DNA from: Natronococcus sp. CG52
GTDB lineage: Archaea > Halobacteriota > Halobacteria > Halobacteriales > Natrialbaceae
NCBI RefSeq assembly: GCF_023913515.1
Contig: NZ_CP099391.1
Span: 744,001-808,000 of the forward strand
DNA: 64,000 bases
Direction: 5' to 3'
The translations under genes were made by a program, and so were the position numbers. Positions 4,884 to 63,183 of this stretch are shown here, in pieces (position 1 is the stretch's first letter; each line of letters begins with the position of its first letter). The notes beneath the pieces were generated by a model. That model was not told the DNA's origin. It saw only the letters and a list, made by a program, of their open reading frames with translations, and ran no database searches.

Positions 4884-4977
4884 TCGCTGCATCGAGAGAA
4901 ACCGATCGGCGCATCCGCCTTTAGCTACGGTCGGCTGCCCGTACTGATCGGTTTTCGCGTTCGATCGAAACTGCTCA

Positions 4978-5814
4978 TCAGAGTCCCGGAGCGAGTGCGT
5001 GGATGAACGTCGCTGTCAGTACCAGTGCGTATCCTCCTCCAACGAGAAGGACGGCTCGAGTCGGTCGTTCGAGGATACCGCGCTCGGCTGCGACTGCAGC
5101 CAGGTATCCGACGAGCGGGAGTATCTGCAGCGCGTGGAGACCCGCGAAGTGTGCGACGCGGAAGTCACCGCTCGTCGACCACCCGACGACGGGGACGGTC
5201 TGACTGGACCCGACGGCGCTGGTTTCGAGCGCCACCATCGCGCCGCCCTCGAAGGCACCGACGACGAACAGTGCGATCCCGACTCGAATACCCCAGGCGA
5301 ACGCGGGAGCGACGCTGAATTCTCGTCGCCACGATCGAACGAGTAGCCACGCAACGAGTGCGGTCATGGCGGTTATCGTCACACCCATTACGACGTAGAT
5401 CGACTGATCGAGGACCGTCGAGTCGTTGAAGTGTGACTCGACGCCTCGGCCCGCTTGTCCGCCGATCAGCGCGATCTCGACGAACGCTGCGACGGCGACG
5501 CCGATCGATACCCGTCGGAGAAGCCGCTCGGAGACCGGGAGGTGATACCCGATCCAGCCCAACGTTGCGGTAAACAGGGCGATCGAGGCCGCGAACTTCG
5601 CGGGTTTGAGCCACGCCGGTTCGCCGCCGATCGTTCGCGGATCGAGCACGATACCGGAGAGAAACGCGACGAGCAACACCGTTTGCACGACGGCAACTCC
5701 GTAGAGGATCGCGTTCCGGCGTTTCAGTTCTGCGACGACGCGTCGCGGGCCGTTCCACCGAACGAATCGGGCCGCCGGTCGCGTCTCGGTGGCTTTCTCT
5801 CTGAATTCGCTCAT
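4978..5814 (-). CDS. Polytopic membrane protein of unknown function
   Basis: 278 residues with seven or eight predicted membrane helices after a hydrophilic, basic N-terminal stretch of about 35 residues (RRVVAELKRRNAILYGVAVV). Polar residues inside or next to helices include an H-N-D motif (ESHFNDSTVLDQS) and H-F-A-G-L-H-A-L in the second half. These suggest a transport, sensory or redox role, but I recognise no family with confidence. It is convergent with the GYD gene and about 200 nt from the bat-type regulator on the same strand, so a regulatory link is possible but unproven. Confidence 0.65.
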   Translation of the reverse strand: MSEFREKATETRPAARFVRWNGPRRVVAELKRRNAILYGVAVVQTVLLVAFLSGIVLDPRTIGGEPAWLKPAKFAASIALFTATLGWIGYHLPVSERLLRRVSIGVAVAAFVEIALIGGQAGRGVESHFNDSTVLDQSIYVVMGVTITAMTALVAWLLVRSWRREFSVAPAFAWGIRVGIALFVVGAFEGGAMVALETSAVGSSQTVPVVGWSTSGDFRVAHFAGLHALQILPLVGYLAAVAAERGILERPTRAVLLVGGGYALVLTATFIHALAPGL

Positions 5815-62741: not shown

Positions 62742-62816
62742 AGCGGGATGGGATAGCCAGGAGATTCCGGCGGGCTCATAACCCGCAGATCGGTAGTTCA
62801 AATCTACCTCCCGCTA
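62742..62816 (+). tRNA. Initiator tRNA-Met (CAU)
   Basis: 75 nt, all arms fold: acceptor AGCGGGA with TCCCGCT, D-arm with GGATAGCCAGGAGATTCC, anticodon stem GCGGG / CCCGC around loop CTCATAA (anticodon CAU), variable AGATC, and T-arm GGTAG-TTCAAAT-CTACC, discriminator A. Three consecutive G-C pairs in the anticodon stem next to the loop and an A1-U72 pair are the archaeal initiator features. No intron and no encoded CCA. Confidence 0.96.
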
Positions 62817-62874
62817 TGTTTTGGCGCGAACAAGTTCGTGAGCGCCATTCATAGCACGGAGTAGTTTGAATCGG
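62797..62874. repeat. Palindrome formed by the tRNA 3' end and an inverted copy
   Basis: The tRNA end plus flank (TTCAAATCTACCTCCCGCTATG then TTTTGGCGCGAAC shown in parts) meets an imperfect inverted copy: the minus strand of 62836-62874 reads TTCAAACTACTCCGTGCTAT before AATGGCGC. The arms of about 35 bp are centred near 62833. Confidence 0.72.
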
Positions 62875-63183
62875 ACGAGACGCCGCAGCGTAGCGAGGAC
62901 GTCTCGGCGTGGTTCAAATCTACTCTCGATACTTCTCGACGCGAACAACAACGAAGAACGGAACCGTTCGAAACGGCTTCGCCGTTTCGTGATGACGAGC
63001 GAAGCTCTCTCGAACCACGATGAGTGTCGCGAGCGTCGAAAGTACGACGAGTAGATTTGAAGGAGACGACGATGGAACGAAGCGGCCGAAATCGGCATCG
63101 CTCAAATTTACTGCCCGCGATACGCTTGCTGCAACCGCCGGCGAAGAGCAACCGTACGCGGAACCCCGGCCAGCAGAGCCGCC
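62817..63183. other. 367-nt region downstream of the tRNA, palindromic, no gene
   Basis: Consists almost wholly of the tRNA-end palindromes (62797-63120). No coding sequence is supported. The last 60 nt (63121-63183) are GC-rich and lead into the stop of the small zinc protein. Confidence 0.6.
62911..63062. repeat. Second palindrome with tRNA-3'-end-like arms
   Basis: Left arm GGTTCAAATCTACTCTCGAT (62911) and further ACTTCTCGACGCGAAC; right arm on the minus strand TTCAAATCTACTCGTCGTAC then TTTCGACGC. A perfect 3-nt-loop hairpin GAAACGGC-TTC-GCCGTTTC sits inside at 62970-62988. A further direct copy, CTCAAATTTACTGCCCGCGA, is at 63101-63120. Confidence 0.7.

What the first reader, a model, noticed from the sequence alone, without database searches (positions are those of the whole stretch)
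62797..63127. Initiator tRNA followed by direct and inverted copies of its own 3' end
Downstream of the tRNA, TTCAAATCTAC-type segments occur in the order direct (62797), inverted (62860), direct (62912), inverted (63050), direct (63101), forming two palindromes of about 80 and 150 bp. tRNA 3' ends are typical attachment sites, so these may be relics of integrated elements. The alternating orientation, however, is not explained by tandem integration and may reflect a distinct haloarchaeal repeat class that grows from tRNA 3' ends.
Basis: partly seen in the sequence, partly recalled or inferred. Interest (0 to 1): 0.65.

Follow-up and report, generated by a model that had tools for sequence, protein, structure and literature searches.

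The report
Hairpin cassette arrays at haloarchaeal tRNA ends
Behind about half of all tRNA genes in salt-loving archaea sits a row of short non-coding units, each made of two hairpins and ending in a fresh copy of that tRNA's own 3' end; the units are swapped, gained and lost between relatives, which points to an undescribed small mobile system built on tRNA genes.

Summary
Downstream of the initiator tRNA (62742-62816) the order is D-I-D-I-D, where D is a direct copy of the tRNA 3' end and I is an inverted copy of its T-loop. The same anatomy (D - oligoT - hairpin H1 - I - hairpin H2 - D) follows 24 of 46 tRNA genes in this Natronococcus-like genome and 20 of 44 in a distant haloarchaeon. A non-haloarchaeal control gave 1 of 38, and upstream flanks almost none. 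Each array copies its own tRNA. Boundaries are sharp: D runs from G53 to the 3' end, I covers T54-C64. A spacing pattern for I-H2-D hits 37 of 43 Halobacteriales genomes, usually several times, but only sporadically elsewhere in the phylum.

Units behave as cassettes bounded by D. Two Haloferax gibbonsii strains with about 99.5% identical flanks carry wholly different proximal units. Two species of one genus carry the same units in different order on the same flank. Copies nearer the tRNA match it better. Integrase elements in the same genome use other duplications and, in three of four cases, lie between tRNA and array, so the arrays are not their scars. Cassette turnover at D is well supported; the recombinase is inferred.

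The parts
62742..62816 (+). tRNA-iMet (CAU), anchor of the array; its 3' end 62796-62816 (G53 to the discriminator) is the master copy D0
   Evidence: ARAGORN, Rfam RF00005 58.5 bits
62817..62857 (+). oligo-T then hairpin H1a (GTTTTGGCGCGAACAAGTTCGTGAGCGCC...), followed by a partial inverted copy of the acceptor end
   Evidence: same H1 family after iMet in other Natrialbaceae genomes
62858..62870 (-). inverted copy I1 of the T-loop and 3' T-stem (GGAGTAGTTTGAA)
62871..62911 (+). hairpin H2a (TCGGACGAGACGCCGCAGCG...GACGTCTCGGCGTG)
   Evidence: similar loops recur in other haloarchaeal genomes
62912..62932 (+). direct copy D1 of the tRNA 3' end
62933..63048 (+). hairpin H1b of the CGACGCGAACAA...GTGAGCGTCG type, enlarged by a nested dispersed hairpin at about 62963-63018 (54 nt)
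   Evidence: alignment to the uninterrupted H1 of a same-family relative, L043; dispersed copies
63049..63061 (-). inverted T-loop copy I2 (GAGTAGATTTGAA)
63062..63099 (+). H2b, decayed
63100..63122 (+). decayed direct copy D2 (GCTCAAATTTACTGCCCGCGATA)

Best explanation
This is a tRNA-anchored array of short (about 110 bp plus a 20 bp repeat), non-coding, D-bounded cassettes, one example of a class found behind roughly half the tRNA genes in the two haloarchaeal genomes examined in full. Each cassette is oligoT/H1 - inverted T-loop (I) - H2 and ends in a copy of the host tRNA's 3' end from G53 to the last base (D), so that entry at the T-loop leaves an intact tRNA. SHOWN: the anatomy; the sharp G53 and 3'-end borders; own-tRNA specificity; fixed orientation; co-varying hairpin arms; D-to-D gain, loss, swapping and reordering between strains and species; better preserved copies near the tRNA. 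INFERRED: new cassettes enter next to the tRNA by site-specific recombination at the T-loop, by an enzyme supplied in trans, probably a tyrosine recombinase; the I-H2-D hairpin is the folded recognition site, with I needed only to pair with D; recombination between D copies then deletes, duplicates and reorders cassettes.
For: Genome-wide and own-specific: 24/46 and 20/44 tRNAs downstream against 2 upstream in each, control archaeon 1/38. Clade-restricted: pattern in 37 of 43 Halobacteriales genomes, 18 of 204 others with one or two hits; backward control 0 of 43 and 3 of 204. In the window's genome and in G035 all strict hits lie at tRNA genes (with 54). Borders: D identity 0.98 at G53 against 0.56 one base before, falling off at the tRNA 3' end; I identity above 0.88 from T54 for 9 bases, falling to 0.27 after C64. 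Turnover: H. gibbonsii ARA6 against LR2-5, 1492/1499 identical upstream and 1974/1985 downstream, with the whole proximal cassette different and identity resuming at GTTCAAATCTACC; a further same-genus genome, G414, holds both types in series. G035 against G096 tRNA-Gly(gcc): order B-C-X-B' against A-B-X-C on the same flank; tRNA-Ser(tga): 2 against 5 cassettes, including a duplicated pair. Identical H2 under tRNA-Ser and tRNA-Pro. Polarity 18 to 2, p = 0.0013; own hairpin arms pair better than swapped arms in 68/81 (H2) and 67/81 (H1). Orientation: 34 H2 with both forward end motifs, 0 reversed.
Against: No recombinase or free circular or single-stranded form was found. The cassettes carry no ORF. 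Strain differences can also arise by differential loss from a longer array through homologous recombination between D copies. Polarity could reflect homogenisation of the proximal copy. No similar unit was found in phage records or viral contigs.
Confidence: 0.55

Rival explanations
1. No special enzyme: D copies and palindromes arise by replication slippage and hairpin-templated strand switching at highly transcribed tRNA genes, and are then reshuffled by homologous recombination between D copies.
For: Alternating D and I and the palindromic anatomy are what fold-back copying would give; D-by-D duplication of a two-cassette block is visible at tRNA-Ser(tga) in G096; in tRNA-Ala(ggc) only the H2 tip differs between species.
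Against: H2 loops are shared across different tRNAs and H2 families recur across genera; adjacent units in one array belong to different families; borders are always G53, T54 and the tRNA 3' end; orientation is fixed; confined to one order within the phylum.
Confidence: 0.2
2. Functional RNA: the units are transcribed 3' trailers (terminator hairpins or tRNA 3'-end mimics) kept by selection on tRNA expression or processing.
For: H1 starts with a T-run in 69 of the 77 distinct cassettes counted; strong, co-varying hairpins; some plasmid-borne iMet genes keep H1 alone.
Against: About half of the tRNAs lack the units; whole units are swapped within a species; copy number varies from 0 to at least 5; three of four integrase elements separate tRNA and array in this genome.
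Confidence: 0.17
3. Scars of ordinary tRNA-integrating plasmids and viruses (att relics).
For: D is a typical T-loop-to-3'-end att duplication; integrase elements do use tRNAs in this genome.
Against: Those elements leave other duplications, mostly lie between the tRNA and its array, and lack the H1-I-H2 anatomy at the ends examined; units are uniformly short with conserved hairpins and no gene remnants.
Confidence: 0.08

Closest known systems
E. coli tyrT rtT repeats (from memory, not found in the paper library)
   Same: Tandem units behind a tRNA gene, each containing the 3' end of that tRNA.
   Different: One locus with 178-bp near-identical units; no inverted T-loop between two hairpins, no families shared between many tRNAs.
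Integron cassette arrays / attC sites (from memory)
   Same: Row of cassettes growing from a fixed anchor, folded hairpin sites with variable tips and a fixed orientation, cassette loss and reordering.
   Different: Anchor is a tRNA 3' end, no integrase gene next to it, no genes in cassettes, site sequence is that of the host tRNA rather than GTTRRRY.
tRNA-targeting integrative elements with tyrosine recombinases (SNJ2, pNOB8, pT26-2 types; review PMC8371274)
   Same: tRNA 3' end as recombination site restored by the element; the T stem-loop is one of three known target regions.
   Different: Units of about 110 bp without genes, with hairpins and an inverted T-loop; in this genome three of four such elements lie between the tRNA and its array.
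Haloquadratum SMR, PATE and MITE elements (PMC3119063)
   Same: Short non-coding haloarchaeal mobile repeats with palindromes and an unknown mobiliser (SMR).
   Different: SMRs have their own terminal inverted repeats, no duplication, >95% conserved copies, and target PATE/IS605 elements; here the flanking repeats are the host tRNA's 3' end and the units are at tRNAs.

Membership tests
tRNA-integrating element / att relic | direct repeat of the tRNA 3' end at the borders | tested here: met
   D = G53 to the 3' end
tRNA-integrating element / att relic | integrase or other genes, or their remnants, between the repeats | tested here: not met
   intervals of about 110 bp consisting of hairpins and I
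Integron | hairpin recombination sites in a cassette array of one orientation | tested here: inconclusive
   hairpins, co-varying arms and one orientation seen; use as recombination sites not tested
Integron | IntI-type integrase next to the anchor | tested here: not met
   no PF00589 gene beside an array except within separate integrated elements
Integron | GTTRRRY core | tested here: not met
   core is the tRNA T-loop GTTCRAAT
SMR (Haloquadratum) | no flanking duplication; insertion into PATE or IS605 elements; >95% conserved copies | tested here: not met
   every unit ends in a 20-bp tRNA copy, lies at a tRNA, and diverges between loci (definition from PMC3119063)
MITE | terminal inverted repeats of a known transposon with a short target duplication | not tested
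   no transposon search was made; the flanking repeat is 20 bp of tRNA and differs with the host tRNA
rtT-like tandem repeat | near-identical tandem units containing the tRNA 3' end | tested here: not met
   adjacent units usually belong to different H1 and H2 families
Known RNA family | Rfam covariance model match | tested here: not met
   only the tRNA itself in the window

The most novel reading that the evidence does not exclude
Haloarchaea run an integron-like system in which many tRNA genes are the platform: minimal hairpin cassettes, recognised as folded single strands through the pairing of an inverted T-loop with the T-loop, enter at G53/T54 next to the tRNA, are mobilised in trans, and can re-target to other tRNAs by exchanging the hairpin between matching T-loops.
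Probability: 0.25. Interest if true: 0.88.

Novelty: new variant of a known kind. Interest (0 to 1): 0.72.

Why it matters
About half of the tRNA genes in the two haloarchaeal genomes examined in full carry these units, the pattern recurs through the order, and the searches of the open-access library found no description of it. If confirmed, it is a tRNA-based cassette system without genes of its own, it explains many intergenic hairpins beside haloarchaeal tRNAs, it warns against reading every tRNA 3'-end copy as a provirus scar, and it makes site-specific use of the T-loop in archaea directly testable. Two natural strains already give a ready comparison.

Tried and rejected
Phage records: none. 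The plasmid hits looked at turned out to be iMet genes on megaplasmids, two with H1 only and one species with full units. The dispersed 225-284 match of the window query is a general intergenic hairpin, not tRNA-linked. A core I-H2-D query in plasmids found nothing. The neighbour-gene scan gave few iMet loci because synteny is lost in most genomes. Ten literature searches returned no description of tRNA-linked arrays in haloarchaea; three of them returned no paper at all, and three other attempts were rejected for syntax.

Full report
OBSERVATION. The initiator tRNA gene lies at 62742-62816. Behind it, direct (D) and inverted (I) copies of its 3' part alternate at the stated places. The stretch folds into consecutive long hairpins, z = -5.0 against dinucleotide shuffles. 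The second, 149-bp palindrome is an ordinary H1 hairpin interrupted by a 54-nt dispersed hairpin.

IT IS GENERAL. In the window's own genome (4.74 Mb, 47 tRNA matches) I compared each tRNA's 3' end with its own flanks. A copy matching at least 15 of 20 nt lies within 400 bp downstream for 24 of 46 tRNAs, upstream for 2 (both because of an adjacent duplicate tRNA gene); other tRNAs' ends match the same flanks at about 12 of 20 on average. G035, a haloarchaeon of another family, gives 20 of 44, mostly perfect 20 of 20, against 2 upstream. G223, a non-haloarchaeal genome of the phylum, gives 1 of 38 against 0. A spacing pattern for I-H2-D hits 37 of 43 Halobacteriales genomes, usually several times, against 18 of 204 other genomes of the phylum with one or two hits; the backward control gives 0 of 43 and 3 of 204. 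Strict hits in the own genome and in G035 all lie at tRNA genes. The window's genus is probably Natronococcus: the neighbouring gene is 87% identical to that of N. pandeyae.

ANATOMY. I is the inverted T54-C64, with a weaker extension. H1 has a median of 64 nt, H2 of 38 nt. H1 begins with a T-run in 69 of the 77 distinct cassettes counted; H2 has a fixed orientation (34 with both forward end motifs, none reversed). Own arms pair better than swapped arms in 68 of 81 (H2) and 67 of 81 (H1) cases; H1 has a median z of -2.7, H2 of -1.5. D and I follow unusual T-loops too, e.g. tRNA-His TTCGATTCT, tRNA-Pro(ggg) TTCAATTCT, tRNA-Val(tac) TTCGAACCC, so the copies belong to the host tRNA, whereas H2 hairpins are shared between tRNAs, e.g. 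an identical 39-nt H2 at tRNA-Ser(tga) and tRNA-Pro(tgg).

DYNAMICS. In two strains of Haloferax gibbonsii the plasmid-borne iMet locus has flanks identical at 1492/1499 and 1974/1985 positions, yet the unit between tRNA and second D is unrelated, with identity resuming at the G of GTTCAAATCTACC. A further genome of the same genus, G414, carries both types in series, so insertion with later loss, or differential loss from a longer array, explains it. Between G035 and G096 (one genus), tRNA-Gly(gcc) has units B-C-X-B' (G035) against A-B-X-C (G096) before the same homologous flank; tRNA-Ser(tga) has two (G035) against five (G096), including a duplicated pair; tRNA-Ala(ggc) keeps H1, I and D but has a different H2 tip. 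Within arrays the first D copy is closer to the tRNA than the second in 18 arrays and further in 2 (Wilcoxon p = 0.0013), as expected if new units enter next to the tRNA.

CONTRAST WITH TRUE INTEGRATED ELEMENTS. The own genome has seven tyrosine-recombinase genes. Four lie close to a second copy of a tRNA end: tRNA-Val(cac) 2226538 with a 38-bp copy at 2239281; tRNA-Met 312415 with a 14-bp acceptor copy at 320584; tRNA-Ala(ggc) 903214 with a 14-bp copy at 920881; tRNA-Lys(ctt) 1410746 with a T-arm copy at 1372179. In three of the four the H1-I-H2-D unit of that tRNA lies just beyond the distal copy, so the element went in between tRNA and array. This separates the arrays from classical att scars.

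MECHANISM. Shown: D-bounded units, own-tRNA specificity, turnover, polarity, paired arms. Inferred: entry at G53/T54 by a trans-acting site-specific recombinase, with I-H2-D as the folded site, then recombination among D copies. The inference rests on the T-loop being a known target region of tyrosine recombinases in tRNA genes (review PMC8371274), on the exact duplication from the putative crossover to the tRNA end, and on I covering only the short core. The main rivals are enzyme-free slippage plus homologous recombination, and a functional transcribed trailer; neither is excluded.

NOVELTY. Of the Haloquadratum repeat classes (PMC3119063), SMRs fail on tested features and MITEs were not tested; the units also differ from integrons and from single-locus rtT repeats (from memory). 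The ten paper searches found no description, but subscription journals are not covered. I rate it a new variant of tRNA-3'-end-anchored arrays; the integron-like reading would be more.

Noticed in passing
G000:C1:2226538-2239320 (outside the window; L026, L392): Integrated element of about 12.7 kb in tRNA-Val(cac) with integrase at 2238327-2238860 and a 38-bp duplication; the tRNA's own hairpin array lies beyond the distal copy.
   Followed up: partly
G000:C1:312415-320597, 903214-920894 and 1372179-1410819 (L393, L394, L397): Three further probable integrase elements, at tRNA-Met(elongator), tRNA-Ala(ggc) and tRNA-Lys(ctt); the first two leave only a 14-bp acceptor copy.
   Followed up: partly
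window 62963-63018; also G000 C1:1850981, C1:3681448, C1:3560524, C2:5149, C2:362409: A dispersed intergenic hairpin (CGTTCGAAACGGC..GCCGTTTCGTGATGACGAGAG..CTCTCTCGAACCACGA) is nested in H1b and occurs elsewhere in the genome, mostly away from tRNAs.
   Followed up: partly
G000:C2 about 4900-5460 and 362160-362720 (L076, L077): The two copies of that hairpin on contig 2 have identical flanks for at least 250 bp on each side, a long repeat on that replicon.
   Followed up: no
L130, L131 (tRNA-Gly) and L134, L135, L144, L313 (tRNA-Pro, tRNA-Ala) in G096/G035: Other insertions behind the arrays: a D-bounded unit with CCCACTTTTTCCGAGGGGCTGC.. and GCACCTTTTTCGTCGTCGGGTGCGC..-type hairpins next to short acceptor-end copies; perhaps a second family using the acceptor site.
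   Followed up: no
L270-L274: Several haloarchaeal megaplasmids carry an extra initiator tRNA gene, with H1 only (Natronorubrum) or a full unit (Haloferax gibbonsii).
   Followed up: partly
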